In this document: in pieces, positions 26,399-46,708 of the stretch
How the letters are laid out: every line of letters starts with the position of its first letter
Numbering within the stretch: the stretch's first letter is position 1
Assembly: GCA_028689615.1 (NCBI GenBank)
Contig: JAQVCV010000015.1
Coordinates: 1-64,000, forward strand
Length of the DNA stretch: 64,000 bases
Reading direction: 5' to 3'
Source of the DNA: Bacteroidales bacterium
GTDB taxonomy: Bacteria > Bacteroidota > Bacteroidia > Bacteroidales > TTA-H9
Notes under the pieces: generated by a model
What the model was told of the DNA's origin: nothing
The model's database searches: none
What the model saw: only the letters and a program-made list of their open reading frames with translations
Translations under genes and position numbers: made by a program

Positions 26399-26422
26399 TT
26401 ACAACCCTTGGTACCTTATTTG

Positions 26423-26454
26423 AGAGCGAGCCCCAGGGTTCGCTCTTTTTTTTT
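26423..26454 (+). terminator. Intrinsic terminator
   Basis: AGAGCGAGCC pairs with GGTTCGCTCT (one G-T pair) across a four-base loop and runs into nine T. The next gene starts 14 bp later, so that gene needs its own promoter or read-through. Confidence 0.88.
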
Positions 26455-26467
26455 ACCCATACTAGCT

Positions 26468-29400
26468 ATGAAAAAGTTATTTCTGTTTCTCACTGGTGTT
26501 CTTCTGTTGGCATTAAGTTGGCCCGTAAGTGCACAGCAACCGGTTCCGGCTCAAATTGCTATTACCGAAATTATGTACAATCCACCCGAATCGGGTACCG
26601 ACACCCTGGAATACCTTGAGCTTTACAATTATGGGAGTTACATCATCAATCTTCAGGGTTATACCTTTACCAGCGGTATCGAGCATACTTTTGGCTCACT
26701 GCTGCTGTATCCCGGAGATTACCTCATTATGGCACTCAACAGCACAGCCTTTACTTCTACATTCGGAGCCCCGGCTATCCAGTGGAGTGCAGGAAGGTTG
26801 AGCAATACCGGAGAAACAATTACCCTTACCGACAACAACGGCCTTTTGGTTGACCTTGTGGAATATGGCATCGCCTCGCCTTGGCCCGTGCAACCCAATG
26901 GCGGCGGATCGTCGCTTACCCTGTGCAATCCATGGACCGACAACAGCCTTGCCGTTAATTGGTCGGCCTCCTCCAACCCGGCAGCCGTTAACGGTGCAGG
27001 GCAAACCATCTTTGCCGACCCCATGAGCGGGTGTTCATCATGGAGTGGAGCTCCGGTAGCCAACTTTTATGCTGCCAGCAACACCATAGCAACCGGTGAA
27101 AGTGCAATTTTTCAGGATGTTTCTGCCGGCAATCCAACCGCGTGGGTTTGGAGTTTCACGGGAGGCAACCCCTCCTCCTCAACACTTCAGCAGCCCCCGG
27201 CCATCCAGTATGCCCAACCCGGAAACTACCAGGTTTGTCTCACTGTGGTTAACGGCAACGGGTCGCACCAGCACTGCGAGCCCAATTACATCAGCGTGAG
27301 CACACCTCCCGATGTGGATATCGTGATCAGCGAAATAATGTACAACCCACCAGGCAGCATCGACTCACTCGAATACATCGAAATTTACAACAACGGATCT
27401 GATGCGGCCAACCTTGCCGGCTACTCGTTCACACAAGGCATCGGCTTTACATTCCCCTCAATTACCCTCCAGGCCAATGGATACCTGGTGTTGGCCTACG
27501 ATGCAAAAGCCCTGGAAGCCACACTGGGGATACAAGCAACTCAATGGGGTTCAGGATTTTTATCGAACAGCGGAGAAGCCATCGTGCTGATTGACCCCAG
27601 CGGACAGGTGGTTGACTCTGTAAACTACTCCACCGACTCTCCCTGGCCGGCCATAGCCGCTGGTAATGGACCATCGCTGGTGTTGTGCGATCCATCGCTC
27701 GACAACTCATTAGGAAGCAACTGGATAGCTGCCACCGAAGAAGCCGGAGTGGTAGCTACCGGTGCCGTAGTTTATGGAACACCCGGAGGCCCCTGTGGAT
27801 TCACCATTCCCGTAGCGGCCTTTGCTGCTTCGCAAACAACCATTCCCGAAAATGGCACCGTTTTCTTCACAAGTCAGTCGCTGGGCTATGTTGAAACTTA
27901 CGAATGGACTTTCGAGGGGGGAACTCCTCCCGTTCAAAACACAGCCAACCCACAGGTTACCTACACAACAGCAGGCTCGTATCAGGTTTGCCTGAAAGTG
28001 ACCAACGTTTATGGCTCCGATCAGTTGTGTCTCGACAATTATGTAACCGTGACACCCAACCCGGAAAGCAACCTTACGATCACCGAAATTATGTACAACC
28101 CTCCCGAGGCCTCCGACTCACTTGAATACATCGAATTGCACAACCCCTCAAACGACACGCTGAACCTGAGTGGCTTCAGAGTTACACAAGGGATCACCCA
28201 CACCTTTGGCAGCGTAAAAATTGAACCCGGTGGGTTTCTGATTCTTGCACGCGACACCACCGCCATACGAAACACTTTTGGTGTAAACTCAGTCAAATGG
28301 GACAATGGAATCCTGAACAATGCAGGCGAACAACTTTTGCTCTGGGACAACTTCGGACGGCAAATTGATTCCGTTTATTATCTCAATTCCGCGCCCTGGG
28401 ATCCGGCAGCCAATGGCAACGGCTACTCCCTGTCGCTATGCAATCCTAGTTTCGATAACGCATTGGGGGAGAACTGGGTACGCTCATTCGAATTGGGAGC
28501 TCAAACAACAGGTGGCCCCATCTGGGCTACGCCTGGGTCACCCTGCAACCACGCTGTTCCTCTGCCTGATTTTTCGGTAAACCAGAACACCATCCCTGTT
28601 GGTGGTCAGGTTGTTTTCGCCGACCTCTCGGCCGGCTTTGTTGCCCAGCGATCATGGCAATTTGAAGGAGGAACTCCCTCTACATCGGCATCGGCCAGCC
28701 CTATCGTTAAATACCTGACTGCGGGCACGTTCAAGGTTTGTTTGAAAGTTCAAAATGTTTACGGGGCCGACTCCATATGCCGCGAAGCCTACATCACTGC
28801 CACAACTGGAGCTGAAAAGCAACTAGTAATCAGCGAGATCATGTACAACAGTCCCGATTCCAACACCGATAGTCTGGAATTTATTGAACTTTACAACAAC
28901 ACCCCCGACACCCTTCAACTCGATGGCTACCGGTTTACGTCGGGTATCAGCCACACTTTCAGCCCCTACGCGCTTGCCCCAGGACAATTTGTTAGTCTGG
29001 CTCGTGATTCAGTGGCAGCTGCCCGTTTTTACGGTGTTCCGTTTTTGCAATGGCGAAGCGGAGAACTTCAAAACAGTGGCGAAACCATCAGGCTGGTTGA
29101 CAACTATGGCCTTGAGATAGATTCGGTTGCCTATGGAACCACACCCCCGTGGAATAGCCTGGCCAATGGATTGGGGAGTTCGCTTGTGCTTTGCAACCCC
29201 GATGCCGACAACTCGCTGCCCGAATCGTGGTTCAGAGCTTTCGACACCGTTGGTCAGATAGCCAATGGCAAATACGTGATGGCACATCCTCAGGCCGGAT
29301 GCAACCTCACCAGGCCACAAGCAGCCTTTATAGCTGCAAACACCTATCTGTTCCCGGGCGAAGAGAATCAATTTACCGATCTCTCTTCGGGCAACCCCAC

Positions 29401-30586
29401 CGCCTGGCTGTGGAGTTTCCAGGGAGCTACTCCGCAAACATCAACCGAACAACACCCTGGCGAAATTATTTATACCTCATCCGGATTGTTTGAAGTTTGC
29501 CTGAAGGTAAGCAACGTATCGGGGAGCGACTCTTTGTGCAGACCAAACTACGTGAGGGTTACCGAAGGAGGAAGTGCCCAATTGGCCATCAGCGAGATTA
29601 TGTACAACCCACCTGATGTTATAGAAGACACGCTTGAATACATAGAAATCACCAACATCGACACCGCCGAGACAGATCTTCGCGGATTTAAAATCACCAC
29701 CGGTGTCTATTTTGAATTTCCTCACACGGTGCTTTACCCCGGCGATAAAGTGTTGGTAGCACGAAACCATCAGGCACTTTTCGATCTGACCGGCCAAAGT
29801 GCCTTTCAATGGCGAAACGGCGAAAACCTGGCCAATACTGGCGAAACCATCACTCTGACCGACCGTCTGGGCATGGTGGTTGATTCGGTAGCCTACCGCC
29901 CTTCACTTCCCTGGCCTTCTGGAACCGATGGCGGAGGCAGATCACTCACCCTTTGCGATCCGTGGCTCGACAACAACGATCCGGCAAACTGGATAGCAGC
30001 CTACGATATTGCAGGCCTTAAACTCAATGGCGACACCCTTTGGGGAACACCAGGATACAGCTGCGGCCCCTCTGCACCAATCATCAGGATAGCCTCAACA
30101 ACCACCACCATACCCCTCAACCAACCTGTGACCTACTTTCCTGTTGATCTGGCCTGGCCATCGTCAGCTTGGATGTGGGTGTTTCAAGCGGCCAACACCG
30201 ACACCAGCTACCAACAGAACCCTGTTGTTACCTACCAGCAAAAAGGGAGGTGGTCGGTTTTACTCACTGCCTACAACGAGTTTGGCAGCCAAAGCTATTA
30301 TGCCAACCGCTACATCAACGTGGTAGAAGCCCAATCCATTGAAGAAAACACTTCACCGTTCAGAATATACCCCAACCCCACCAACGGACCCTTAAAAATT
30401 GAGTCAAACAACATTAAAATTAGCCTTATTACAATTCACAACCTGCAAGGAGTGATGGTTGCCAGACAAAACATTAACAATAATTTGACACTTTTTAACC
30501 TGACTGACTACCCCGCTGGTATGTATTTTGTGACTATTCAGGCCGAAAATGGAACATCTTACACCATGAAAATAGTTCGGCGATGA
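26468..30586 (+). CDS. Giant T9SS protein with five LTD-PKD modules
   Basis: This 1372-residue protein has a signal peptide (FLFLTGVLLLALSWPVSAQ), then five consecutive modules of a lamin-tail domain plus a PKD domain, and a type A sorting domain (IYPNPTNGPLKIES to MKIVRR). Each module opens with an I-x-EIMYN word; these begin at bases 26561, 27326, 28079, 28829 and 29588, so module length is 250-255 residues. Each PKD has the WxF-x-GG/GA and VCLxVxN strands. ATG 26468 is chosen because it directly precedes the signal peptide. The likely role is a rigid surface fibre or adhesin, an inference from architecture. Confidence 0.9.
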   Translation: MKKLFLFLTGVLLLALSWPVSAQQPVPAQIAITEIMYNPPESGTDTLEYLELYNYGSYIINLQGYTFTSGIEHTFGSLLLYPGDYLIMALNSTAFTSTFGAPAIQWSAGRLSNTGETITLTDNNGLLVDLVEYGIASPWPVQPNGGGSSLTLCNPWTDNSLAVNWSASSNPAAVNGAGQTIFADPMSGCSSWSGAPVANFYAASNTIATGESAIFQDVSAGNPTAWVWSFTGGNPSSSTLQQPPAIQYAQPGNYQVCLTVVNGNGSHQHCEPNYISVSTPPDVDIVISEIMYNPPGSIDSLEYIEIYNNGSDAANLAGYSFTQGIGFTFPSITLQANGYLVLAYDAKALEATLGIQATQWGSGFLSNSGEAIVLIDPSGQVVDSVNYSTDSPWPAIAAGNGPSLVLCDPSLDNSLGSNWIAATEEAGVVATGAVVYGTPGGPCGFTIPVAAFAASQTTIPENGTVFFTSQSLGYVETYEWTFEGGTPPVQNTANPQVTYTTAGSYQVCLKVTNVYGSDQLCLDNYVTVTPNPESNLTITEIMYNPPEASDSLEYIELHNPSNDTLNLSGFRVTQGITHTFGSVKIEPGGFLILARDTTAIRNTFGVNSVKWDNGILNNAGEQLLLWDNFGRQIDSVYYLNSAPWDPAANGNGYSLSLCNPSFDNALGENWVRSFELGAQTTGGPIWATPGSPCNHAVPLPDFSVNQNTIPVGGQVVFADLSAGFVAQRSWQFEGGTPSTSASASPIVKYLTAGTFKVCLKVQNVYGADSICREAYITATTGAEKQLVISEIMYNSPDSNTDSLEFIELYNNTPDTLQLDGYRFTSGISHTFSPYALAPGQFVSLARDSVAAARFYGVPFLQWRSGELQNSGETIRLVDNYGLEIDSVAYGTTPPWNSLANGLGSSLVLCNPDADNSLPESWFRAFDTVGQIANGKYVMAHPQAGCNLTRPQAAFIAANTYLFPGEENQFTDLSSGNPTAWLWSFQGATPQTSTEQHPGEIIYTSSGLFEVCLKVSNVSGSDSLCRPNYVRVTEGGSAQLAISEIMYNPPDVIEDTLEYIEITNIDTAETDLRGFKITTGVYFEFPHTVLYPGDKVLVARNHQALFDLTGQSAFQWRNGENLANTGETITLTDRLGMVVDSVAYRPSLPWPSGTDGGGRSLTLCDPWLDNNDPANWIAAYDIAGLKLNGDTLWGTPGYSCGPSAPIIRIASTTTTIPLNQPVTYFPVDLAWPSSAWMWVFQAANTDTSYQQNPVVTYQQKGRWSVLLTAYNEFGSQSYYANRYINVVEAQSIEENTSPFRIYPNPTNGPLKIESNNIKISLITIHNLQGVMVARQNINNNLTLFNLTDYPAGMYFVTIQAENGTSYTMKIVRR

Positions 30587-32912: not shown

Positions 32913-35456
32913 ATGAAGATTTTTCGGCTTTTTTTATGCATTTTGGGTCTCTTTACCACGGCAGTCATGGGGCAAAGCCACCAGGAAACCATACCCATAA
33001 ATGGTTTTGAATTTACAAAAGCTGCTGAATCTGCATGGAAACCTGCTACTGTTCCCGGAACAATTCACACCGATCTTCTTAACCTTCGTCTGATTCCGGA
33101 TCCGTTTATTGGGCAACACGAAGCGGCTGTGCAATGGATCGGTAACCAGACATGGATCTACCGTACCACGTTCAATGCCGACAAACTTGCTGATTTCAAG
33201 CATGTTGAAATCAAGTTTGGAGGGTTAGATACCCACGCCGATGTGCTGATTGATGGCAGGATCGTACTCCAAACCCACAACATGTTCAGGGCTTATTCGT
33301 TGCCACTTACCGAACCGCAACGAAAGGGAGATCACCAGTTGGAGGTGGTGTTTCATCCCGCGCAAATACACGATTCGCTGGCGGCCATGCGATACCCGAC
33401 ACGCTTGCCCGATAACCGCACCTTCAGCCGGAAAGCCGGTTACCACTATGGATGGGACTGGGGTCCGAAACTGGTAACCTGTGGCATCACGGCGCCTGTG
33501 ACCCTTGAGGGGTGGAACATCTTCAAGCTAAAATCTGTTCAGGTGCGCACCATCAGCGCAACCAACGAAAATGCTATACTCCAGGCCGAAGTGGAGGTAT
33601 TTGCCAATGAGCCACGAGAAATCGAGATAAAAGGAACCGTTGCGGAAACAGGAACCACCGTAGAAAAGAAAGCAAAATTAAACCCTGGCAACAACACCCT
33701 GGTTCTCCCATTCCAGATTCAAGATCCCAACTTGTGGTGGCCGCGTGGTCATGGCCGACAAGCACTGTATCATCTCAACCTGCTGATTGACAACCAACCT
33801 GTGACAAAACCTCACCCTTTTGGAATCAGAAAGGTTGAACTGGTTCAAAAACCCGACGACCACGGAACCTCATTCGCCTTCAAGATCAACGGGAAACTAA
33901 TCTATGCAAAAGGGGCCAACTACATCCCGCAAGACAATTTCATCACCCGGCCTGGTTACTCACAATACCACCGACTGCTGACAGACGCTGCCCACCAGGG
34001 TTTCAACATGTTGCGCGTGTGGGGCGGGGGTATCTACGAACGCGACTGCTTCTACAACCTGTGCGACTCGCTGGGGTTGATGGTCTGGCAGGATTTCATG
34101 TTTGCCTGCTATTTTGTGCCAGCTACTCCCGAGATGGTTAACGAAATATCGATGGAAGCTGACTACCAGATACGCAGACTGCGGCCGCACCCCTCTGTTG
34201 TAATGTGGTGTGGCAACAACGAAATTGACGAGGCATGGCACAACTGGGGCTATCAGAAACTCTACGGATACACAGCTTCCGATACGGCCACGGTATGGGG
34301 CGACTACCAAAAAATATTCAATCAATTGATTCCTCGGTTGCTCGAAAAACTCGACCCCGATCGACCCTATTGGCCATCGTCGCCGCAGTATGGATGGGGA
34401 CGAGCCGAAAGCCTTGCCCATGGCGATATGCACTACTGGGGAGTGTGGTGGGGTAACCAGCCGTTTGAGGTTTACCGCCAAAAAACAGGCCGGTTTATGA
34501 GCGAATACGGCTTTCAAAGCTATCCGCACCCGGCTACTATAAGCCAATGGGCCGGAGATCGCGAAAACCTTAACAGCGAAAACCCTCTGATCAAAGCTCA
34601 CCAAAAACATCCAACTGGTGCGGCAACCATCGAAACCTATCTGGCCCGCGAGTTCGCGATTCCGCAGGATTTCGACCACTACGTTTACCTCAGCCAGGTG
34701 CTTCAGGCAAAGGGGATGGCAGTAGCCATTGAAACACACCGCATAGATGCCCCACGATGCATGGGAACCCTTTTTTGGCAACTCAACGATTGCTGGCCCG
34801 TGACTTCGTGGTCGGCCACCGACTATTACCAACGTCCGAAAGCCTTTTTCCACCACCTTAAACGACTCTTCGCCCCGGTGCTGATAGCTGCTCATCTACA
34901 ATCAGACACCCTAAGCGTGAGAGCTGTAACCGACAGCGCCGACCTGGATAAACTTTCCGCGACACTTACCCTGGCCGACTACCAGGGAAACAAGCTCATG
35001 ACAAAAGCGTTTGAGTTGAGCCTAAAAAGAAACGAAGGGAAAACCCTGGCAACAATCCCGCTCAAACAACTGTTGCAAAACCGCGAGGTTGATACCACCA
35101 ACATGTTCGTACTAATCGGGTTAAACGATAAAGAAGGCCGAATGCTCAGCCATTGCCGCACACTGCTGTGCAGTCCCAAGAACTTCGCAACCTCCAGCAT
35201 TGCCCTGACCCACACCCTTCAAAAAACCGGCGATAACAGCTTTACACTGACCCTTTCTGCCACAAAACCCGCTTTCGATGTATTCATCAGTACAGAAAAA
35301 GACCCCGAAGCCAGTTTCTCCGACAACTACACCGATGTATTGCCCGGCGTGCCGGTTGAAATAACAATCAAAAGCAAGCTAACGTTGGAAGAACTGCAAA
35401 GCACCCTTGCTACCCGTTGCTGGAACCAGCAAGACGAAACTCAAAAGAGACAATGA
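32913..35456 (+). CDS. GH2 beta-mannosidase-like glycoside hydrolase
   Basis: This 847-residue enzyme starts with a signal peptide (LFLCILGLFTTAVMGQ). The N-terminal sugar-binding domain (about 30-195; TWIYRTTFNADKL, GLDTHADVLIDG), the Ig-like domain and the TIM barrel follow the GH2 mannosidase layout. KGANYIPQDNF and LRVWGGGIYERD mark the barrel. The acid/base is Glu437 in WCGNNEIDEAW and the nucleophile Glu531 in FMSEYGFQSYP. It would remove terminal beta-mannose residues, such as the core mannose of N-glycans or mannan ends, probably in the periplasm. It lacks a sorting domain. The PNGase/SusCD locus lies convergently downstream. Confidence 0.92.
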   Translation: MKIFRLFLCILGLFTTAVMGQSHQETIPINGFEFTKAAESAWKPATVPGTIHTDLLNLRLIPDPFIGQHEAAVQWIGNQTWIYRTTFNADKLADFKHVEIKFGGLDTHADVLIDGRIVLQTHNMFRAYSLPLTEPQRKGDHQLEVVFHPAQIHDSLAAMRYPTRLPDNRTFSRKAGYHYGWDWGPKLVTCGITAPVTLEGWNIFKLKSVQVRTISATNENAILQAEVEVFANEPREIEIKGTVAETGTTVEKKAKLNPGNNTLVLPFQIQDPNLWWPRGHGRQALYHLNLLIDNQPVTKPHPFGIRKVELVQKPDDHGTSFAFKINGKLIYAKGANYIPQDNFITRPGYSQYHRLLTDAAHQGFNMLRVWGGGIYERDCFYNLCDSLGLMVWQDFMFACYFVPATPEMVNEISMEADYQIRRLRPHPSVVMWCGNNEIDEAWHNWGYQKLYGYTASDTATVWGDYQKIFNQLIPRLLEKLDPDRPYWPSSPQYGWGRAESLAHGDMHYWGVWWGNQPFEVYRQKTGRFMSEYGFQSYPHPATISQWAGDRENLNSENPLIKAHQKHPTGAATIETYLAREFAIPQDFDHYVYLSQVLQAKGMAVAIETHRIDAPRCMGTLFWQLNDCWPVTSWSATDYYQRPKAFFHHLKRLFAPVLIAAHLQSDTLSVRAVTDSADLDKLSATLTLADYQGNKLMTKAFELSLKRNEGKTLATIPLKQLLQNREVDTTNMFVLIGLNDKEGRMLSHCRTLLCSPKNFATSSIALTHTLQKTGDNSFTLTLSATKPAFDVFISTEKDPEASFSDNYTDVLPGVPVEITIKSKLTLEELQSTLATRCWNQQDETQKRQ

Positions 35457-35567: not shown

Positions 35568-37490
35568 TCAATCGACCTTTTGTACCAGAACACTCCTTTG
35601 GGCAGTATGAACCAGATAAACTCCGGCCGGGAGACCCGACATATTCACGATATGCCTTAGCGCTTGAGCCGAAGTGTACACAATTTGTCCGGTGAAGCTA
35701 TAAACACGCACTTCGGAAGGATTGGAAAGTTGTACTATAAGGGTGGTTTGTACAGGATTTGGATAGAAAACATCAGAACTGGACTGCAACCGCTCAGTGG
35801 ATGTTGAATAATCGACAATCAGGCTAAGGGCCTCACCAGTAGTTTGTCCACAACTGTTCAGAGCATTGCAGCGAAGCACACCTTGACCAACATATTGCCA
35901 GAATATGGTTGCTGTAGTATCGCTTTGGAAAACAATCCCAAGGCTGTCGGGATCCAACACCCACTCATAGGCACCAGCATTATCAACTGTGGGTACCCAA
36001 TAAGAAGAAGAGGGGCTTAAGCGATAATCGACGGTATCTGGTCCTTGAGGCTGAGTGGGTGGCTGGGGCAAAGGGAAAACAGTTATGGAAACTGTATCGC
36101 TTGCCAATCCGATTCCATCCGACACGACCACAGAAAAAAGAGCAGGTGCCATTGGGATTGCTGTTGGATTCTGCTCGCTGCTGTAAAACCCAGGAGGCTC
36201 GCTCGACCATGAATAGGAGTAATTTCCAGACCCATTCATTGGCATGGCTGACAGAAACACCTCTTCGCCTGCACAAACAGCAGTTGGGGAGGCCCCGGCA
36301 TTCACCTCCACAGGCAAGCCATTGATGCTAATATCAACATCATCGTTGGCCGTACATTGCGTATTCAGATCGGTTACTGTGAGTGTAAAGGTTGTAAATG
36401 ACATCAATTGAACGGTAAGCGGATTTTGGATGGTTGGATTGACAAGCTGGGATGAAGGCGACCATTGCCAACTGTAGTTGCCACTTCCAGCCAGCCCACT
36501 ACCATAAAGTGAAGCCTGTGAGCCATAACCAATCAACAAATCCTCTCCGGCATTGGCTTCAAGAGGCCATACGAAGACAGATTGGCTGATGCATGAGGAG
36601 ATACCGCAAACCGATTCAGCCCTAACCTGATAGAGTGTTGACTGCTGGGGAGTTACAACAATCGTGTCGCCAAATCCCACAGGAGAAAGCCCACAACCAT
36701 CGGCATACCAACACCACTGTTCCCCTTCAGCCAAAGGAGGCCCGATCACAGAGAGGCTAACCTGGTTGCCTTTGCAAATTGTATCGCTGGAGATGTTGAT
36801 GGCTACAGGAGCAGAAGGGGCAGTGCTAATTGTAACTACCACAGATTTGCACATCGATGAACCACACGCATTGACAGTTCTTGCATAGTATGTTTGGGTA
36901 GCAATCGGGTTGACAACTACACTACTTCCAAGGCCTACTGGTGTAATGCCGCAACCATCAGAGAACCATTCAACAACATCGCCAGTTCCAACAGAGCCTC
37001 CCCATGCAGAAAGCATCACGGGATTTCCGGCACAGGACACAGATGGGCTGGCCTGGACAGAATCAGGGGCAGAGGGAAGCGGGACAACAACAAATGTAGC
37101 AAAGGCACATGACGAAGTATCACCGGGGCTTTCCCAACGGGCATAATAGGTTGTTGTGACCGCAGGCATGGAAGTTGCCAGCACACTACCTTCTCCAATA
37201 AAAATATTGCCACACCCACTTATGTACCATCGACAAACCTCACCTGAGCCACCATTTGCCTGCAGCATTAAAACATCCTGATTTCCCGCGCATGAAGAAG
37301 GTGGACTCATGGTAACCGATGTAGGAGGAATGGATAACTGACTACCCGAAACAGAAGAAGCATCGTAAAGATACGTGCGAAAAACAGAAGAAACCTCAAC
37401 GCAATGGCCTTCTGCTTTTCCCTTTAAACCCCAAACCGACAAATTTGCCACAACAGCAAAAAGCCAGAAAATTGATGTTTTGTTAATCAT
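35568..37490 (-). CDS. Secreted T9SS protein with repeated Ig-like domains
   Basis: This 640-residue protein begins with a signal peptide (ASIFWLF-type; SIFWLFAVVANLSVWGLKG). Three Ig-like repeats of about 80 residues (60-310) share WxxxGCG, a G-x-G-x-x-V turn, TYYAR-type strands and two or more cysteines. A PKD-like domain (about 320-395; ANAGEDLLIGYGSQASLYG), a second one (400-475) and a bridging domain follow, then a type A sorting domain (YPNPVQTTLIVQL to VLVQKVD). No enzyme motif is seen. It is a likely surface protein. It has its own promoter and lies downstream of the PNGase gene terminator, so it is a separate unit. Confidence 0.83.
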   Translation of the reverse strand: MINKTSIFWLFAVVANLSVWGLKGKAEGHCVEVSSVFRTYLYDASSVSGSQLSIPPTSVTMSPPSSCAGNQDVLMLQANGGSGEVCRWYISGCGNIFIGEGSVLATSMPAVTTTYYARWESPGDTSSCAFATFVVVPLPSAPDSVQASPSVSCAGNPVMLSAWGGSVGTGDVVEWFSDGCGITPVGLGSSVVVNPIATQTYYARTVNACGSSMCKSVVVTISTAPSAPVAINISSDTICKGNQVSLSVIGPPLAEGEQWCWYADGCGLSPVGFGDTIVVTPQQSTLYQVRAESVCGISSCISQSVFVWPLEANAGEDLLIGYGSQASLYGSGLAGSGNYSWQWSPSSQLVNPTIQNPLTVQLMSFTTFTLTVTDLNTQCTANDDVDISINGLPVEVNAGASPTAVCAGEEVFLSAMPMNGSGNYSYSWSSEPPGFYSSEQNPTAIPMAPALFSVVVSDGIGLASDTVSITVFPLPQPPTQPQGPDTVDYRLSPSSSYWVPTVDNAGAYEWVLDPDSLGIVFQSDTTATIFWQYVGQGVLRCNALNSCGQTTGEALSLIVDYSTSTERLQSSSDVFYPNPVQTTLIVQLSNPSEVRVYSFTGQIVYTSAQALRHIVNMSGLPAGVYLVHTAQRSVLVQKVD

Positions 37491-37766: not shown

Positions 37767-40277
37767 TTATTGCAAAACAATTTTATGCGCTTCGGAGAAA
37801 CCATTTCCCTGCAACTGTATGAAATACAAGCCACGGGGAAAGCCAGTAAAATCAATCTGGCGGGTGGAGCCGTCCCACATGAAACTGCTAACCACCTTAC
37901 CCGAAAGGTTATAGACACTAACAACGGCACTTTTTATCTTCATATTTCCGGTTAGCGACAGCTCAATTTTCCCTTTAGTAGGGTTAGGATTGGCGTTGAA
38001 AGCTGCCTCGCGAGCCATCGCAGGCTGATCCTGTCCAACAACAATTATTGGCGAATTGGCAAAAGTAACAATATGAGAAGCAACAATCAGATGAGGGTTG
38101 AACCCGTCATCGCAGTTGGAGCACGTTACGCCGGTAACGCAATCGGGATGGTTGGGGTGGCACAAATCCACGTAGTTTTCGTAGAATTTGTATTGCATCT
38201 CAATATTTCCAGCTGCGACGAATTGGGTCATATCAAAATCGAACCAACGCGCAATGGCTCCCGGGCACCAACCGGCACGGTCGTGATACCAAGTTCCGTT
38301 TTGGGGCTGACAACCATCGGGATTGGGGTTGCAATCCTGCCAGTTGAGCTGGTCGAACTTTTTCACGCCATCAACCCAGATTGAATGCGTAGCGTTGTAG
38401 AATTCAGCCGCGTTGCTGGTGTTCAGTGATCCCCATCCATGACCTGTTGAAACGAGCTTTAGTTTGGCTGCCTCGGTATTGGCCGGGAACTCATAATCAA
38501 ACAACTCAACAGGTTGCAAGTTGGCGTAATCGCCAAACTGATAGGTATCGTTCCACACCTTTTGCATGAAACTGTACTTGTAAGGAGGAGTTCCGGCTTT
38601 ATAAGTAAGGTTAAGATCATACACATAACCATTATCGAGGGTCTCGCAATTTACTCTGAAATCGATTTTTCCACGCAACACCATGGCATAGTCGGTGAGG
38701 TTGATGGTGTGCGAGCAAGCTTTGCCGTAAGGGGTGATGTAGCGGATAATCTCATACCACTCGCCATCGTGGCCACGAGCCTCAATCCAGGCTACACGAT
38801 CCCATTCACCACAACCGCCTGCCGGACACGAAACAGTGAGGGTGGCCATGATGGTATCGAAAGCTGCGAGAAACGAAGGGAGCTCAGCCGTAACAACTTT
38901 TGAATTGTTGGCAGTGTTGATCAGAACATCCTGCACAGCAATCACATCCATGTTGGTGGCAGTAGGAGCAATGTTGATGGCCACAGTTTTTGAAGAAACA
39001 GCACCAAAGTTGTTGGTGCTTTGAACCTCAAGCACATAATTGCCATAAGCCGGGGGCGTCCACCAACCGGTGTAATGCCCGTTCCAGTAATTGCGAGCCA
39101 TAATAGTTTGCCCGTTGATGATAAACTTAACATTAGCCACGAAGAACAATTCGGGGTAAGTGATTTCGCTAACAGTAGCCAATTCGAGCGGCGACAGTGA
39201 ACTCATGTAAACATCGCCGGCAAGCGGATGGCGGATGTCGATTTCGGGTACGTGCAACGTGGGGCTCAGTACCATGAATCGTTGGCGAACCGGTGTAGCG
39301 GCGTTGTACTGACCGCCTCCGGCTTGTGTTGCTTCAACGGTCACCAAGCCGGTATCTCCGGACAGAGTAATCAGATTTCCATCGATGGTGGCAGGACCGC
39401 TGATGATGGCAAAACTCACCGGCAAACCTGAAGTGGCTGTTGCTTCAATAGTGAAAGGCTCGCTGGTGGTAAGTTTGTTAGGAATAGGCGGAAAAGCTAT
39501 TGCCTGGAATGAGGGATCGAGTGTTCCAAGAAAGTTGGAGGAGTTTCCGGTGAGGGCAAAGTTGAGCAGGTCGCCATCGCGCGCAGGCGATTCCACCTCT
39601 GAGGTGAGTTTGGTGATTGCTGTGTTGTTGCCTCCTGGAACACCCTGGTTGAATTTGTAATACATCTGCAAACCAGCCTCTGAACCGGTGAGCTCGTTTT
39701 GCATCATGTCCTGGATTTCGGTCTGTGTAAGTCCTTTATTCCAAACCGAAACCTCATCGGCACGGCCTCCAAAATAGAATTGAAAACTACCCACAGGCGA
39801 CTTTCCAATTGCAAAGGGAACTGTACCATCGGTAAGAACACCCGATGCAGCAGCACTCCCTTTTACATTCCCATTGACATAAAGAGTGAGCGTTGACCCG
39901 TTGTAAACCAGCGCCAGGTGTTGCCACACCTGAGGAATTATGGTGTTGGCCGGTCCCACATATTCATGAAAACCGGTGCTGCTGATGTAGCGACACTCCA
40001 GCTTGCCGTCGCCGATTTGGATCATGTAAAACTCCGTAGCTCCGCCACGGAAGCCCATCATCCCCTGACCATACGAAAGGTCGTCGGAAAAAAACCAGCC
40101 GGCCATCGAAACGCCCTGGGTAGAATTAAGAACGTACGACTCGCCATTGGGTGTTGATACCCAGTCGTCAACACGATCGAAATGTAGATACTGGTTGCTC
40201 TGCGACATCAACTGAACCGAGAGGCACAGCATCACAGCCACCATAAAAAACCTGAAAGAGTAAAGCACTTTGTTCAT
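37767..40277 (-). CDS. LamG / PNGase F-type peptide:N-glycanase-like T9SS protein
   Basis: This 836-residue protein has a signal peptide (1-25), a LamG domain (27-215), two Ig-like domains (about 260-435), a PNGase F-type two-jelly-roll domain (445-740) and a T9SS sorting domain (762-836). The last domain matches Elizabethkingia PNGase F in key words: CGEWDRVA, GEWYEIIRYITPYG and DRAGWCPG. The acidic residues Asp493, Glu545 and Glu625 align with PNGase F Asp60, Glu118 and Glu206, the known catalytic trio. It would cleave the glycan-asparagine bond of N-glycoproteins at the cell surface. It sits 172 bp downstream of SusD on the same strand and ends in a terminator. Confidence 0.9.
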   Translation of the reverse strand: MNKVLYSFRFFMVAVMLCLSVQLMSQSNQYLHFDRVDDWVSTPNGESYVLNSTQGVSMAGWFFSDDLSYGQGMMGFRGGATEFYMIQIGDGKLECRYISSTGFHEYVGPANTIIPQVWQHLALVYNGSTLTLYVNGNVKGSAAASGVLTDGTVPFAIGKSPVGSFQFYFGGRADEVSVWNKGLTQTEIQDMMQNELTGSEAGLQMYYKFNQGVPGGNNTAITKLTSEVESPARDGDLLNFALTGNSSNFLGTLDPSFQAIAFPPIPNKLTTSEPFTIEATATSGLPVSFAIISGPATIDGNLITLSGDTGLVTVEATQAGGGQYNAATPVRQRFMVLSPTLHVPEIDIRHPLAGDVYMSSLSPLELATVSEITYPELFFVANVKFIINGQTIMARNYWNGHYTGWWTPPAYGNYVLEVQSTNNFGAVSSKTVAINIAPTATNMDVIAVQDVLINTANNSKVVTAELPSFLAAFDTIMATLTVSCPAGGCGEWDRVAWIEARGHDGEWYEIIRYITPYGKACSHTINLTDYAMVLRGKIDFRVNCETLDNGYVYDLNLTYKAGTPPYKYSFMQKVWNDTYQFGDYANLQPVELFDYEFPANTEAAKLKLVSTGHGWGSLNTSNAAEFYNATHSIWVDGVKKFDQLNWQDCNPNPDGCQPQNGTWYHDRAGWCPGAIARWFDFDMTQFVAAGNIEMQYKFYENYVDLCHPNHPDCVTGVTCSNCDDGFNPHLIVASHIVTFANSPIIVVGQDQPAMAREAAFNANPNPTKGKIELSLTGNMKIKSAVVSVYNLSGKVVSSFMWDGSTRQIDFTGFPRGLYFIQLQGNGFSEAHKIVLQ

Positions 40278-40449: not shown

Positions 40450-42105
40450 TCAATGGCACCACCATATTTTCACATCGGGTGAATCGCCGCCCTGCCGGGC
40501 CCTGGCATCCGACCAGTTTGTTGTGTTGTAAATACTCTCCGACGACGGGTAAGGAAGCCTGAAATGACCAACAGGATTGCCTTCCCTGGGCAACAAAGCT
40601 ACCCGGCGCACCAGGGCATAAGCCTCGGAAGGCTGGCGGAAAGCATCAATCCATCTCTGAGTATAGAGAAACCGGAGCTTCTCTTCGTCGTTCTGGGCAT
40701 TCCACGAGCCAAACACATTAAGTACCGATGAGGCATTCAAATGAGCCGGAATGGAAAGCAGATCGTCGAAACGGGCACCCGACAAAGGCAGGCGTGAATT
40801 ATGAGCCACCTTTGACCACCACTCTATCGAAGAGTTGATGCCATTCATATACTCTATATCAGCCATATCAGGATCCATGGGCACACCAATCCCTCTCAGG
40901 TAAGCTTCGGCCTTCAGATAATGGACCTCGGCACCTGTCATCAGAATGATGGGCATGAAATCTTCGTCGCGAATCACGAAATAGTTGAAATACGAATAAT
41001 TGCAATTTTCGCCTTTGATGGTGAAATTGCCAGGATCGTCGCGGTGTTCACCATAAGGCACGCCACCGGGCATCGGGGTGTTTATCTCAGGAACCTGCGG
41101 GAAAGCCACCCATTGGTTGTCGCCGTTGGGTTCAAAGAAAATATAGGCACGGGGATCAAATATGCCGCTTCCGTCAACGTTGTCGTTGCTCGACATCTGA
41201 TGCCACATATTGGAGCCCATCCGAAGCCATTTGTGCTCGCGAAACGACCAGTTAAGGCTCCAGTTTTCGAAACCCGAAATGGCAGGCCAAATGCAGGCGG
41301 CCTCCAGCACGGGGCTCGTGAAGTCGTAGCCCAATAGCACCGGTTCGTTATTCTGAATGATAGCGGCAATGATTTCACCGGCTTTCTCGGGTTCCTTTTC
41401 CGACATCCGCATGGCATAACGCAACCTCAGCGAGTTAGCAACCTTCTTCCAGGCAAGCATTTCGCCAAAGAAAAGCCTGTCGAACTTCACAAAAGTCTTG
41501 AAAGGTTCTACGGCAGCAGCCGTATCGTTGATCATAGCAGCAGCTTCTTCGAGCGATTGCAGTTGCGAGAGGTAGATATCGCGTTGCCGGTCGTAAGGTG
41601 GATAGAGCTTTTCCAGATCCAAATAACCAAAGCCGGCTTCCGAAAAGGGGATATCGCCAAAGTAATCGGTCATTTTAAAGGTTTTATAGGCCAGCAAAAT
41701 TTTCACCATGGCCTTCATATTGTTCACACCGGCACTTTGAGGATAGGAGGCCAGCCTTCTCTCCAGCTCCCTGATGGCTGGCAAGGTATTGTAGTAGTTT
41801 TTCCACAACTCCTCGGTGCCAATAGAAAAGTTGCCCCAGGCCTCGCTACCGAGGGCTGCTTGCTGGGTTTGTTTGTAGAGAATCTCGTTCCAGATATAAA
41901 ACTGCTCGTTGCCGGTGGGAACCAACGATTCGATCACCCCGTTGAACAGCGAACCGTCGCTGGCAACGGTAAATTTTAGCGGATCGGTATTAATCTCTTC
42001 AAAATCTTTGGTGCAGGCTCCATTCAGCAACAACAACAAACCAAGCGAAACGCCAATGACTGATTGGGCAGCAGATGCAAAATATGTTTGGATGTTTTTT
42101 CTCAT
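40450..42105 (-). CDS. SusD/RagB-family nutrient-binding lipoprotein
   Basis: This 551-residue lipoprotein has a signal and lipobox ending at Cys31 (LLLLLNGACTKDFEEIN). The motif EEINTDP just after the anchor and the TPR-rich helical layout fit the SusD-like group often labelled SusD-like_2. YLKAEAYLRGIG and RWIDAFRQPSEAYALVRR near the C-terminus fit the family. It would sit on the outer leaflet over the SusC channel and bind the substrate. It starts 12 bp after the SusC stop, so the pair is one operon. The ligand is unknown; locus context suggests glycoprotein pieces. Confidence 0.92.
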   Translation of the reverse strand: MRKNIQTYFASAAQSVIGVSLGLLLLLNGACTKDFEEINTDPLKFTVASDGSLFNGVIESLVPTGNEQFYIWNEILYKQTQQAALGSEAWGNFSIGTEELWKNYYNTLPAIRELERRLASYPQSAGVNNMKAMVKILLAYKTFKMTDYFGDIPFSEAGFGYLDLEKLYPPYDRQRDIYLSQLQSLEEAAAMINDTAAAVEPFKTFVKFDRLFFGEMLAWKKVANSLRLRYAMRMSEKEPEKAGEIIAAIIQNNEPVLLGYDFTSPVLEAACIWPAISGFENWSLNWSFREHKWLRMGSNMWHQMSSNDNVDGSGIFDPRAYIFFEPNGDNQWVAFPQVPEINTPMPGGVPYGEHRDDPGNFTIKGENCNYSYFNYFVIRDEDFMPIILMTGAEVHYLKAEAYLRGIGVPMDPDMADIEYMNGINSSIEWWSKVAHNSRLPLSGARFDDLLSIPAHLNASSVLNVFGSWNAQNDEEKLRFLYTQRWIDAFRQPSEAYALVRRVALLPREGNPVGHFRLPYPSSESIYNTTNWSDARARQGGDSPDVKIWWCH

Positions 42106-42117
42106 GACGAATAATGT

Positions 42118-45100
42118 TTAAAAAGTGGCACTAATTCCGAATGTAAACGAACGGGTTCCTGGATACGAGGCCCATTCGAAACCCTGTGCATTGCCCGAAC
42201 CCATAATGCCTTCGGGATTGATGTTGTCGGGGAGTGTTTTGTAAAAATAAAACAGATCGTGGCCCGTAACCGAAACTCGCAGCTTTTGTACGAACTTCAG
42301 TTTTCTGATGAGCGATTGAGGCAGGTTGTAGCTAAGCGACAATTCGCGCATTTTCACCCAGGTATTCTCAACAATTCCGGGCGTAGAAATTATTTTTCCC
42401 CAACCACCGGCGTTGGGCATGTATTTGTAGTAATAATGCACCACGGTTGTGTTGGGAGTTCCATCGGCATGAACCCCATCCAGAATCACCCCCACGTTGC
42501 GCACGTTGCCTTCCGGATCGGTATAGGGCAACCCGCCGCCGTCGCGTTCGAGCAGAGTTTCGGGACTCTGCCCGGTTTGCAGCCCGATAACGTAGGAACC
42601 ACAATAGATGTCGCCGCCCCATTTGGTGTTGACCAACGCACTAAAGGTAAAATTTTTATAGGTAATCTGCGAAGTGTAAGCAGCCAGAAAATCGGGAGAA
42701 GCATTGCCAATTTTCACGCGCGTATCGGTGATCTCGTAAGCAGTACCGGCATCGTTGACGATGCGGTTGCCGTTGGCATCGTACACGTAGTCGTAGCCCA
42801 CGATTGTACCATAATCGTCGCCTTCGTGAAGCTCCATTGCCGGACCGTTCAATCCCCAGATGTCGGCTAGCGGGAATGGGCTCTCCATGTTACCCAGGCT
42901 TTCGATCCGGTTGCGGTTGACCGACACATTGAGGCCGGTGCGCCACACAAACGTCGGGGTTTGAACCGGTACGGCATTCAACTGCAACTCAAAGCCTCGA
43001 TTCGACAGAGCTCCCTCATTAATCTTCACCTGGCTTGCGCCCGAACTAACAGGCACAGGGAGTTGCAAAATCTGATCAAATGAATATTTGTAGTAATAAG
43101 TGAACTCAACATCAAGGCGGTTGTCGAAGAGCCCCAGGTTGAAGCCCAACTCATAGGTATTCACCCGCTGTGGTTTTAGATTTATTGGAGGAATTAACCC
43201 GGGGTACGTAGAGGTTTGCTGTCCCCCAAAAAGGCCTGTAGCGAAATAGAAATTGGTTTTATAAGGATCGTCGCCAGAGGCTGTCTGGCTGATGTTACCC
43301 CTGATTTTAACAAAATTGAGCCAAGGTACCTTCTTTTGTATATCAAAAGCTTCGCTGGCTATAAAACTCAACGATAATGACGGATAGAAAAACGAGTTGG
43401 CATACGAGGGCAGGGTTGACGACCAGTCGTTGCGGCCGGTAAGATCAGCAAACAAGTAGTTTTTCCACGACAGGTTGAGGAAGGCATACACCGAATTGAT
43501 TCGTTGTCGTTTGTACAACTCCTGAGCCGCAATTTTTGAAGGCGAATCGCCCACCTGAACCACCTGCCCGTCGGCCGAAAACACATAATCGGTGTAGTTG
43601 AGGAAGGTGTACATGTTTGGATAATACCACGTTCCGGAAGTGCCATAGATGCTGTAATAATCGTAATCGTAGCGGTTGGCCCCGGTTGTGAAGGTCATGC
43701 TCAGGTTCTTCCCGAAAAGCTTATCGTAGTTGGCCGTTAAAATCAGATCATAGTTATCGGCATAGATCTTGGCCATGCTGTTTGAGTATCCACCGTTTAG
43801 AAGTCCTTCGAAATCGGTTGGTTTGCGGCGGCTCTCGTATTGCTCGAGACTGTAATCGCGGGCAACCCGGCCCGTAAGGTTTAACCACGAAGTAAGGCTG
43901 TACGATAATGACAACGCACCAACGTATTTGTCGCGATCGAGGGTTGTATTGTTGTTGTAGTAATTCCACCATATATGTTGATCTACATACATATAGGGAT
44001 AACCCTCCATCGGGTTTTGACTTCCATCGGCCAGTTGATAATGATCTTTATCGAGCCCCTTGTAGCTCCTGCCCCAGGAATACAAATAGCCTTTGCTGAA
44101 CGAATTGCCATCCTCACCCAGCAAAGGGCTGTTAAGCCTGTTGAATTTGATATAGCTAAGGGTGACGTCGGCTTTCAGCTTTTCGCTGATTTTCATGCTG
44201 GCTCCCAGGTTGATGGTGGTGCGGTCGTAATTTGAATTTTCGATGATAGGGGTATGGTCTTCGCGGGTGAGCGAAACACGCAGAGTACCTTTATCGTTGC
44301 CCGCTTCGGCCGAGATGTTGTGTTTGATGGTGTGTCCGTTGCTGAAAGGCATTTTTAAATTGTCGGGCTGTGCCGAATAGGGGCGCAGCTCGCCATCCCA
44401 CCAGCGAATCATCTGGCCGTTCATTTCGGGACCCCACGAGACCGCCGATCCGTAGTAACCGAATTCGGCTGAAACAGGCGAGGTTTGTCCCTGCTGGTTG
44501 ATAACCAGGTTATCGGCATACAGTTTCGGGAAAGTAGGTTCGCCATCCACGATTGGGAAAGAGGGTTCGAGAAGCGATACCGGGCCGCCGCTGCCGTATT
44601 TGTTCTGCACATCGCGGTAGAGATAGGGTTGTGTAACCTGATAATCCATGTTGTAGGTGATGCCGATCCCCTCCTGTTTGCGTCCCCGCTTGGTGGTGAT
44701 AAGAATGACCCCGTTGGCACCACGCGAGCCATAAAGAGCCGAGGCAGCACCTCCCTTGAGCACGGTATAGTCTTCAATGTCGTAGGCATTGATGTCGTTG
44801 ATCCCATTCCCCCAGTCGATGCCACGGCCAATGTTTTCGAGGCCTGGTGTGTTGTCAAGGGGGATGTTGTCAACCACGATCAGTGGCTGGTTGTTGCCCG
44901 AAAGGTTGTTGTTGCCCCGAATGGTGATACGTGTCGAACCGCCTTCAACGCCGTTGTTGTTGGAGATAAGCACACCGGCAGCCTTTCCCTCGATGGCACT
45001 GATGACATTGGGAGCACTGGCTTTCACCAATTCGTCGGCATTGATTTTCTCGGTAGAGTAACCAATCTCCCGTTGCTGCCGCTTCACACCCAACGCCGTA

Positions 45101-45417
45101 ACAACAACGCCGCCAAGCTCAACGCCTTTGGTTTTCAACTCAACATGAAGTGGTTCCTGATTGTTTATAACAACCTCTTTGGTTTCAAAGCCCATGTAGC
45201 TGAAAACCAATGCCTGTCCCTTCTCCACTTTCATCATGAACCGGCCATCCAAATCGCTGATAGTTCCTGTGGTGGTTTGTTTTATTTTGATGGCAACTCC
45301 CGGCAAAGGGTTTCCATCTTCAGCGGATCTCACGGTTCCGCTAATCTGCAACTGCTGGGCCCATGCCCCACTCGTGATAATGAGTGCTAAAAAACTGATT
45401 AATAAAGTTCTAATCAT
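42118..45417 (-). CDS. SusC/RagA-family TonB-dependent outer membrane transporter
   Basis: This 1099-residue protein has a signal peptide (LLISFLALIITSGAWAQ) and a carboxypeptidase-like regulatory domain (25-105; ISGTVRSAEDGNPLPGVAIK). A plug (115-225; IEGKAAGVLISNNNGVEGG and DYTVLKGGAASALYGSRGAN) and a 22-strand-type barrel follow, ending in the aromatic residue of SFTFGISATF. It imports large ligands together with SusD using TonB energy. I use ATG 45417 over an in-frame ATG at 45426. CATCTTTG (45465-45472, minus) matches the -7 box at seven of eight positions. It is the first gene of the SusC-SusD unit. Confidence 0.95.
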   Translation of the reverse strand: MIRTLLISFLALIITSGAWAQQLQISGTVRSAEDGNPLPGVAIKIKQTTTGTISDLDGRFMMKVEKGQALVFSYMGFETKEVVINNQEPLHVELKTKGVELGGVVVTALGVKRQQREIGYSTEKINADELVKASAPNVISAIEGKAAGVLISNNNGVEGGSTRITIRGNNNLSGNNQPLIVVDNIPLDNTPGLENIGRGIDWGNGINDINAYDIEDYTVLKGGAASALYGSRGANGVILITTKRGRKQEGIGITYNMDYQVTQPYLYRDVQNKYGSGGPVSLLEPSFPIVDGEPTFPKLYADNLVINQQGQTSPVSAEFGYYGSAVSWGPEMNGQMIRWWDGELRPYSAQPDNLKMPFSNGHTIKHNISAEAGNDKGTLRVSLTREDHTPIIENSNYDRTTINLGASMKISEKLKADVTLSYIKFNRLNSPLLGEDGNSFSKGYLYSWGRSYKGLDKDHYQLADGSQNPMEGYPYMYVDQHIWWNYYNNNTTLDRDKYVGALSLSYSLTSWLNLTGRVARDYSLEQYESRRKPTDFEGLLNGGYSNSMAKIYADNYDLILTANYDKLFGKNLSMTFTTGANRYDYDYYSIYGTSGTWYYPNMYTFLNYTDYVFSADGQVVQVGDSPSKIAAQELYKRQRINSVYAFLNLSWKNYLFADLTGRNDWSSTLPSYANSFFYPSLSLSFIASEAFDIQKKVPWLNFVKIRGNISQTASGDDPYKTNFYFATGLFGGQQTSTYPGLIPPINLKPQRVNTYELGFNLGLFDNRLDVEFTYYYKYSFDQILQLPVPVSSGASQVKINEGALSNRGFELQLNAVPVQTPTFVWRTGLNVSVNRNRIESLGNMESPFPLADIWGLNGPAMELHEGDDYGTIVGYDYVYDANGNRIVNDAGTAYEITDTRVKIGNASPDFLAAYTSQITYKNFTFSALVNTKWGGDIYCGSYVIGLQTGQSPETLLERDGGGLPYTDPEGNVRNVGVILDGVHADGTPNTTVVHYYYKYMPNAGGWGKIISTPGIVENTWVKMRELSLSYNLPQSLIRKLKFVQKLRVSVTGHDLFYFYKTLPDNINPEGIMGSGNAQGFEWASYPGTRSFTFGISATF

Positions 45418-45792
45418 ATCTAACATGATTTCGGTATTCGTGCCATAAAACCACTTGTTCGTTTCAAAGATGGTTGCACTTCAGCCCTTTAATCCTAACA
45501 AACAAAACAGGCTTAAACGTTTTAGTTTTTTTGCAACAAACTGTCAATCAACAATCAAAGAACCAACTCAAGCGGATTTAAAGCGGTTGCAAGATAATGT
45601 TTTTCTGATTATCAGCACAAAAGGAGAGAAAAAAAACGAGAATAAATGTGTTTTTTACACAAAAAAGTTGGAACACAAAGAGCCTCGATACTCAATGCTT
45701 TGAAATGGAAGGCAACAATTTGCTACACCGCTTTGCAAGTTGTGGTCAGATTAGTTTACAGGCTATCAACACCCGCCCAAAATGGCCCGATT
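45418..45792. other. Intergenic region before SusC
   Basis: No gene is supported. A partial -7 match (CATCTTTG, minus, 45465-45472) could serve susC. The rest is AT-rich with no clear hairpin or operator. Confidence 0.4.
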
Positions 45793-46620
45793 TCATTTAG
45801 GGGTCACAAACAAGGCATTGGCCACGGCTCGCTCGGCGGCTACAACCTTGTGCGGCACCGAAACAACCCGGTTAGGAACACCATTTCTAAGCCACAAGGA
45901 TGTGGAACTGCCACCATCGAGATTAAGAGCATCTGAGCAACCCAGATTCAACATCACCTGTTGAAGCTCCGACAAGGAGAAGCCCGAAGAGGCAGGCTCT
46001 TTGCCACTTACTGCAACCCAAACCATAACACCGTCAGGCCTGAATCCCACTGCTGAACGCCCATAGCGCTTGTTGCTGAAACTGTAGTCGGGCAAACTCA
46101 CAAGCTTGCCATTTGAGATCAACAGGGGACCGGCCGCGAAAACTGTTCTAAACGCTGTTGGTCCCCAACCCTTTTCTGGCGTCGGCAGTATGGTCCAGCC
46201 ACCAATGCGGGCTACAAGCGCGCCGTCGTCGAGTTCGGGAAGAAACCAACGTGCAGGCAAATCGGTGCGGGAAGTATCGGTAGTTTTACCATCAATTCGG
46301 GTAAAGCAAACCGATCCCCCCTCGAGGGTGTGAAAAAAATTGCCGTTGATAGCCGCAATTGCACCGGCTGAATCGGCCCAACAGCTCAGTGGTTTAAGCC
46401 TTTTACCATCATGGGCAACACGAAGCCTGTAAAGGTTGGTATCAATCAGCAGGACATTGATCCATTGGTTTACCTGATTCAATTTACCCTGAAAGTGAAG
46501 CCATTCTATACCCTCGTATGGCTGACTCTGTTGCCAGGCAGGCGATTGACCCACCATGGTGGAACTAAGAAAAAGGATGACTGCTAAAAGAACCATCAGT
46601 TTTTTCAGCAGCCATTTCAT
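45793..46620 (-). CDS. Phosphodiester glycosidase (NAGPA-like)
   Basis: This 275-residue protein has a signal peptide (MVLLAVILFLSSTMVGQ) and a phosphodiester glycosidase domain. Family words are AAINGNFFHTLEGG, RSAVGFRPDGVMVWVAVSG and the C-terminal ALNLDGGSSTSLWLRNG. The human relative removes GlcNAc from GlcNAc-phosphomannose on N-glycans; bacterial relatives act on sugar phosphodiesters. Here it lies upstream of SusC on the same strand with its own promoter. ATG 46620 is chosen because the longer frame runs through the promoter box. The substrate is an inference. Confidence 0.88.
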   Translation of the reverse strand: MKWLLKKLMVLLAVILFLSSTMVGQSPAWQQSQPYEGIEWLHFQGKLNQVNQWINVLLIDTNLYRLRVAHDGKRLKPLSCWADSAGAIAAINGNFFHTLEGGSVCFTRIDGKTTDTSRTDLPARWFLPELDDGALVARIGGWTILPTPEKGWGPTAFRTVFAAGPLLISNGKLVSLPDYSFSNKRYGRSAVGFRPDGVMVWVAVSGKEPASSGFSLSELQQVMLNLGCSDALNLDGGSSTSLWLRNGVPNRVVSVPHKVVAAERAVANALFVTPK

Positions 46621-46674
46621 TGTTAAGCAATAGCCTTCGTGTATCATGCATCTAAGATGATTAAAACTCGAAAG

Positions 46675-46708
46675 CAAAGATACCTGACTTAAGATATCGG
46701 GAGACAAA
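46675..46708 (-). promoter_or_regulatory. Promoter of the phosphodiester glycosidase gene
   Basis: On the minus strand TTTG (46705-46708), 22 bp, then TATCTTTG (46675-46682). The leader to ATG 46620 is about 48 bases. Confidence 0.65.

What the first reader, a model, noticed from the sequence alone, without database searches (positions are those of the whole stretch)
37767..40277. PNGase F-type domain with intact catalytic trio in a LamG / T9SS scaffold
Seen: Asp493 (CGEWDRVA), Glu545 (VNCETLD) and Glu625 (NAAEFYN) align with Asp60, Glu118 and Glu206 of PNGase F, and the flanks GEWYEIIRYITPYG and DRAGWCPG are shared. Known: these residues are catalytic in Elizabethkingia PNGase F. The protein is more than twice as long, with an N-terminal LamG and two Ig-like domains, and it carries a T9SS sorting signal. 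Inference: a surface-displayed, substrate-tethered N-glycanase. The cysteine flanking Glu206 in PNGase F is absent (AAEFY here), so the local disulfide may differ.
Basis: partly seen in the sequence, partly recalled or inferred. Interest (0 to 1): 0.62.

Follow-up and report, generated by a model that had tools for sequence, protein, structure and literature searches.

The report
Surface N-glycan-cutting enzyme with dedicated importer
An uncultured Bacteroidota bacterium encodes a secreted relative of the laboratory enzyme PNGase F, fused to a lectin-like module and made from a three-gene set with its own outer-membrane importer, which looks like a compact and widespread way of stripping sugars off glycoproteins and taking them up.

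Summary
The protein is real: 836 aa on the minus strand at the stated coordinates. It carries a LamG module, two Ig-like modules, a full PNGase F domain and a T9SS tail. The modelled domain superposes on PNGase F over 289 residues (Z 31, rmsd 2.5 Å).

The 'intact catalytic trio' needs correcting. Asp493 and Glu625 (= Asp60, Glu206) are invariant in 101 homologues. Glu545 (= Glu118) is Glu in only 16 of 101 and is the fourth most variable of 304 columns. Published work treats this position as the one that admits or blocks core α1,3-fucose. The enzyme therefore has a catalytic dyad plus a specificity switch. The missing Cys pair beside Glu206 is a family-wide trait.

susC and susD lie directly upstream in 63 of 71 related loci, and this SusD type occurs in all 26 PNGase-bearing genomes of the order but in only 1 of 269 others. 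No other neighbour is conserved. The genome also has GH92, GH20, its only recognised β-mannosidase (beside the cluster) and T9SS SprA; no GH18 was detected.

Best reading: a T9SS-exported N-glycanase that feeds a dedicated SusCD importer. T9SS PNGases with β-modules are already published; the conserved three-gene unit is the new part.

The parts
37767..40277 (-). LamG-Ig-Ig-PNGase F-T9SS protein, 836 aa
39513..40202 (-). LamG/concanavalin-like module, residues about 26-255
   Evidence: Pfam Laminin_G_3 37-189 at 4.9e-23; model matches 4dqa Z 23.3 over residues 21-255
38967..39515 (-). two Ig-like beta modules, residues about 255-437
   Evidence: Predicted strands only; no Pfam match
38040..38966 (-). 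PNGase F catalytic domain, residues about 438-746
   Evidence: PDB phmmer 2.9e-25; 1pnf Z 31.2, rmsd 2.5, 289 aligned
38799..38801 (-). codon of Asp493 (= Asp60 of PNGase F), catalytic
   Evidence: 101/101 homologues
38643..38645 (-). codon of Glu545 (= Glu118), variable, putative specificity position
   Evidence: Glu in 16/101; 4th most variable of 304 columns
38403..38405 (-). codon of Glu625 (= Glu206), catalytic
   Evidence: 101/101 homologues
37770..37988 (-). T9SS type A sorting domain, residues 764-836
   Evidence: TIGR04183 2.6e-10, PF18962 4.9e-11
40450..42105 (-). SusD-like surface lipoprotein (lipobox LNGAC), partner gene
   Evidence: PF12771 9.5e-44; upstream of PNGase in 63/71 loci; 26/26 versus 1/269 genomes
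42118..45426 (-). SusC/RagA TonB-dependent transporter, partner gene
   Evidence: TIGR04056 7.2e-175; conserved upstream
32913..35456 (+). GH2 beta-mannosidase, only hit of its Ig-domain family in this genome; adjacent here, not conserved in related loci
   Evidence: 2je8 BtMan2A 2.9e-186; only PF17786 hit in the genome; absent next to PNGase in relatives

Best explanation
It is a T9SS-exported peptide:N-glycosidase of the PNGase F family. It hydrolyses the GlcNAc-Asn bond of N-glycoproteins at the cell surface with the Asp493/Glu625 pair. Its LamG module probably holds the substrate, with two Ig-like modules as spacers. The released N-glycan is caught and imported by the SusC-SusD pair encoded just upstream. 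The glycan is then dismantled by GH92 alpha-mannosidases, GH2 beta-mannosidase and GH20. Position 545 tunes which core structures are accepted; with Glu there, this protein should resemble PNGase F in excluding core alpha1,3-fucose. Shown: family, fold, invariance of the dyad, variability of 545, the conserved susC-susD-PNGase unit, and the presence of the other enzymes and of T9SS SprA. Inferred: activity, surface location, the LamG role, that the SusCD cargo is the glycan, and the fucose prediction.
For: Family and fold. Dyad invariant in 101 homologues with Arg667, His613 and Trp670 essentially invariant. Dyad-only requirement in a distant active relative, zebrafish Ngly2 Asp421/Glu555 (PMC12753239). 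Glu118 as the alpha1,3-fucose-blocking position (PMC9522356). T9SS tail and SprA in the genome. susC-susD directly upstream in 63/71 loci, with no other conserved neighbour. SusD type in 26/26 PNGase-bearing genomes versus 1/269 others. GH92 x2 in this genome and GH92 in 25/26 such genomes versus 170/269. GH20, beta-mannosidase, no GH18 or GH130 detected. PNGase F-superfamily enzymes with beta modules and T9SS tails are active N-glycanases (PMC12381499).
Against: No activity data. Distances between the acidic residues could not be measured. SusC's closest solved relative is BT2264, whose structure holds a peptide, so the imported cargo could be peptide. The gene lies in an uncultured lineage with no known glycoprotein diet. 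The GH2 neighbour is not conserved.
Confidence: 0.74

Rival explanations
1. The unit scavenges protein rather than glycan: the PNGase strips N-glycans so that proteases can reach the polypeptide, and the SusCD pair imports peptides or glycopeptides.
For: The closest solved SusC is BT2264 (1.6e-86, next best 3e-40), described with a bound peptide (PMC7782687). No glycoside hydrolase is conserved in the unit.
Against: GH92 enrichment in PNGase-bearing genomes (25/26 versus 170/269) and a plausible exo-glycosidase set in this genome. SusD is closer to glycan-binding SusDs than to BT2263. No protease is conserved in the unit.
Confidence: 0.15
2. The domain keeps the fold but acts mainly as a glycan-binding or otherwise modified protein, not as an N-glycanase.
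For: One of the three residues named for PNGase F is not conserved. Accessory lectin module present.
Against: Asp60, Glu206, Arg248 and Trp251 equivalents are essentially invariant over a broad set, including tandem copies. Active enzymes elsewhere also lack Glu118.
Confidence: 0.06
3. The protein is a PNGase but its neighbours are coincidental: SusCD serves another polysaccharide.
For: SusCD pairs are abundant in Bacteroidota; eight of 71 loci lack the pair upstream.
Against: Same-strand adjacency in 63/71 loci and near-exclusive genome co-occurrence, 26/26 versus 1/269. Sampling within one order makes these partly non-independent, but the group spans 45-88% identity.
Confidence: 0.04

Closest known systems
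PNGase F of Elizabethkingia meningoseptica (1PNF, PF09112/PF09113)
   Same: Whole two-jelly-roll fold (Z 31.2, 289 residues), Asp60/Glu206/Arg61/Arg248/Trp251, Cys51-Cys56, and Glu at the 118 position
   Different: 314 aa mature protein without LamG, Ig or T9SS modules; has Cys204/Cys208 and Trp191 where this family has Ala/Tyr and His
PNGaseDo and PNGaseL (PMC12381499)
   Same: PNGase F-superfamily catalytic domain with beta-sheet accessory modules and a C-terminal T9SS signal; demonstrated N-glycan release. PNGaseDo has three beta modules, as here
PNGF-II and Bacteroides group 2 PNGases (4R4X, 7ZGN)
   Same: Same catalytic fold (Z about 24), no Cys pair beside Glu206, variable residue at the Glu118 position
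   Different: N-terminal bowl-like domain instead of LamG-Ig; Gly at position 118 with a compensating Glu419 that aligns one residue from Asp583 here
Gpd complex of Capnocytophaga canimorsus (PMC3128124)
   Same: SusC-SusD pair plus surface deglycosylating enzyme and a ConA-like protein, for harvesting N-glycans
   Different: Uses a GH18 endo-beta-N-acetylglucosaminidase and separate surface lipoproteins; here one T9SS protein combines lectin-like and PNGase modules
Zebrafish Ngly2 (9LWG)
   Same: PNGase F domain in which mutation of the Asp/Glu pair abolishes activity
   Different: Lysosomal, acid-active, with protease-associated and thioredoxin-like modules

Membership tests
PNGase F family (EC 3.5.1.52, PF09112+PF09113) | Two side-by-side eight-stranded jelly rolls | tested here: met
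   AlphaFold model superposes on 1pnf over 437-755, Z 31.2, rmsd 2.5
PNGase F family (EC 3.5.1.52, PF09112+PF09113) | Significant match to the C-terminal Pfam family | tested here: met
   PF09113 6.2e-13, above cut-off; the N-terminal model PF09112 gave no hit, though phmmer aligns that half with PNGase F
PNGase F family (EC 3.5.1.52, PF09112+PF09113) | Catalytic Asp60 and Glu206 | tested here: met
   Asp493 and Glu625, invariant in 101 homologues
PNGase F family (EC 3.5.1.52, PF09112+PF09113) | Glu118 (not family-wide; specificity position) | tested here: met
   Glu545 here, but only 16/101 homologues; Asp or Gly in Bacteroides enzymes
PNGase F family (EC 3.5.1.52, PF09112+PF09113) | Residues converge in one cleft | tested here: inconclusive
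   Implied by superposition; coordinates not available for distances
PNGase F family (EC 3.5.1.52, PF09112+PF09113) | Releases N-glycans from Asn | not testable with these tools
   Needs an enzyme assay
T9SS type A cargo | C-terminal sorting domain plus signal peptide in a T9SS-bearing genome | tested here: met
   TIGR04183 2.6e-10; SprA 2684 bits in own genome; N-terminal hydrophobic helix 2-21, no dedicated signal-peptide predictor was run
T9SS type A cargo | Surface location or secretion | not testable with these tools
   Needs fractionation or proteomics
Gpd-like SusCD glycoprotein-deglycosylation locus | SusC-SusD pair linked to a glycoprotein-deglycosylating enzyme | tested here: met
   63/71 loci; 26/26 versus 1/269 genomes
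Gpd-like SusCD glycoprotein-deglycosylation locus | GH18 ENGase as the cleaving enzyme | tested here: not met
   Cleaving enzyme is a PNGase; no GH18 detected in the draft genome

The most novel reading that the evidence does not exclude
A Bacteroidota-wide minimal N-glycan harvesting unit, susC-susD plus a T9SS LamG-PNGase. Its catalytic dyad is frozen while the core-fucose contact site (position 545) is hypervariable and differs between most tandem copies, so that copies diversify to cover different N-glycan cores.
Probability: 0.35. Interest if true: 0.58.

Novelty: new variant of a known kind. Interest (0 to 1): 0.42.

Why it matters
PNGase F is a standard laboratory reagent limited by core alpha1,3-fucose. 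A large family (529 relatives found in GTDB genomes) with a constant catalytic pair and a naturally varied fucose-contact position is a ready panel for enzymes of different specificity. The dedicated SusCD pair also gives a testable model of how environmental Bacteroidota harvest N-glycans without a GH18 endoglycosidase.

Tried and rejected
Glu545 as a conserved third catalytic residue: rejected. Asp548 of the LDNG motif as a substitute: conserved in 75/82 close homologues but absent in many distant ones, so not family-wide. Asp583 as the counterpart of Glu419 of PNGF-II: plausible, 90 Asp and 10 Asn of 101, but the alignment is one residue off and no coordinates were available, so left open. 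NAGPA, Ig_7 and GH2 neighbours as parts of a conserved locus: rejected, none recurs near the PNGase in 80 loci. Bacteroidota-type promoter upstream of susC: no match there, and window-wide matches are near chance; sigma-70 scan uninformative. Pfam annotation of the two middle modules: no match. The PNGF-II paper (PMC4367255) was not held.

Full report
Observation. The ORF at 37767-40277 is on the minus strand and encodes 836 aa. Pfam finds Laminin_G_3 (37-189), N-glycanase_C (594-696, 6.2e-13) and Por_Secre_tail (764-834), each above its cut-off. phmmer against PDB sequences finds PNGase F at 2.9e-25 over 460-699, so the resemblance is far beyond chance. A profile of 11 homologous domains finds PNGase F at 1.1e-45, zebrafish Ngly2 at 1.8e-15 and the Bacteroides and PNGF-II enzymes at 1e-8 to 1e-10.

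Structure. An AlphaFold2 model built on 68 homologues has mean pLDDT 87. Its residues 437-755 superpose on 1PNF with Z 31.2, rmsd 2.5 over 289 residues. Ngly2, the Bacteroides enzymes and PNGF-II follow at Z 24-26. Residues 21-255 match a lectin-like protein (4dqa, Z 23.3), so the LamG fold runs further than the Pfam hit. Two beta modules lie between, visible only in the predicted strands.

Catalytic residues. In an alignment of 101 homologues, Asp493 (Asp60) and Glu625 (Glu206) are invariant. His613, Arg667 and Trp670 are essentially invariant. Glu545 aligns with Glu118 but is Glu in only 16 of 101, with Gly, Ala, Ser and Pro common, although its neighbours Thr546, Asn549 and Gly550 hardly vary among close homologues. 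It is the fourth most variable of 304 columns. Published work describes this position as the residue blocking core alpha1,3-fucose in PNGase F, Asp in Bacteroides group 1 and Gly in group 2 (PMC9522356). In Ngly2, mutation of the Asp60 and Glu206 counterparts abolishes activity (PMC12753239). The 'trio' is therefore a dyad plus a variable site. Copies in tandem arrays all keep the dyad and in most arrays differ at 545. Glu419 of PNGF-II, said to replace Glu118, aligns one residue from Asp583 here, which is Asp or Asn in 100 of 101; this is a lead, not a result. The Cys pair flanking Glu206 is absent in all 82 close homologues, so it is a family trait.

Setting. susD ends 172 bases upstream and susC lies 12 bases before susD, all on the same strand. 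In GTDB genomes 529 relatives were found and the best 80 kept. Of 71 loci with enough upstream sequence, 63 have this SusD upstream on the same strand, 59 within 400 bases, and 58 also show SusC. Clustering all neighbours shows that only SusC and SusD recur; the next cluster, a LacI-type regulator by its sequence, is in 10 loci. In 295 genomes of the order, 26 have the close PNGase type; all 26 have the close SusD and only 1 of 269 others does. Related genomes are not independent, so the p-value of 2e-36 overstates certainty, but the pattern is plain.

Pathway. The genome holds two GH92, one GH20, three GH29-type hits and one beta-mannosidase-type Ig domain. That last is the GH2 at 32913-35456, closest to B. 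thetaiotaomicron beta-mannosidase 2je8. No GH18 or GH130 was detected; the draft is 96% complete. GH92 occurs in 25 of 26 PNGase-bearing genomes versus 170 of 269 others. SprA of the T9SS is present.

Mechanism. The best reading is export by T9SS, capture of glycoprotein with help of LamG, hydrolysis at Asn by Asp493/Glu625, import of the glycan by SusCD, and stepwise breakdown. The main rival is peptide import, because the nearest solved SusC is BT2264, which was solved with a peptide.

Known work. T9SS PNGases with beta modules, including PNGaseDo with three, have been made and shown active (PMC12381499). The Gpd complex pairs SusCD with a GH18 enzyme and a ConA-like protein for the same purpose (PMC3128124). 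I found no paper in the library describing a conserved susC-susD-PNGase unit or the hypervariability of position 545; that is absence from this library only. It is therefore a new variant of a known kind, of moderate interest.

Noticed in passing
window 45793-46707 (-): NAGPA-type phosphodiester glycosidase (PF09992, 9.8e-31) just upstream of susC; it could act on phosphorylated glycans but is not conserved near the PNGase in relatives.
   Followed up: partly
window 24155-30586 (+): Two large T9SS proteins in a row, one with LTD and PKD domains by Pfam (24155-26398) and one of 1392 aa that reads as repeated units of the same kind (26408-30586, not scanned).
   Followed up: no
window 35568-37490 (-): T9SS protein with three Ig_7 stretches directly downstream of the PNGase gene; not conserved in relatives.
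   Followed up: partly
L053, L055, L064, L075, L089, L096, L097, L099: Tandem PNGase arrays of two or three copies, all with the Asp/Glu dyad, most with different residues at the 545 position.
   Followed up: partly
L061:990-2075 and nine other loci: A LacI-type regulator upstream of the susC-susD-PNGase unit in 10 of 80 loci, a possible regulator of the unit (named from its sequence, no family scan).
   Followed up: no
L088:3276-6830 and the 1100-1200 aa hits: A second, longer PNGase F-like type with about 30% identity, widespread in the order and often in the same genomes; not studied here.
   Followed up: no
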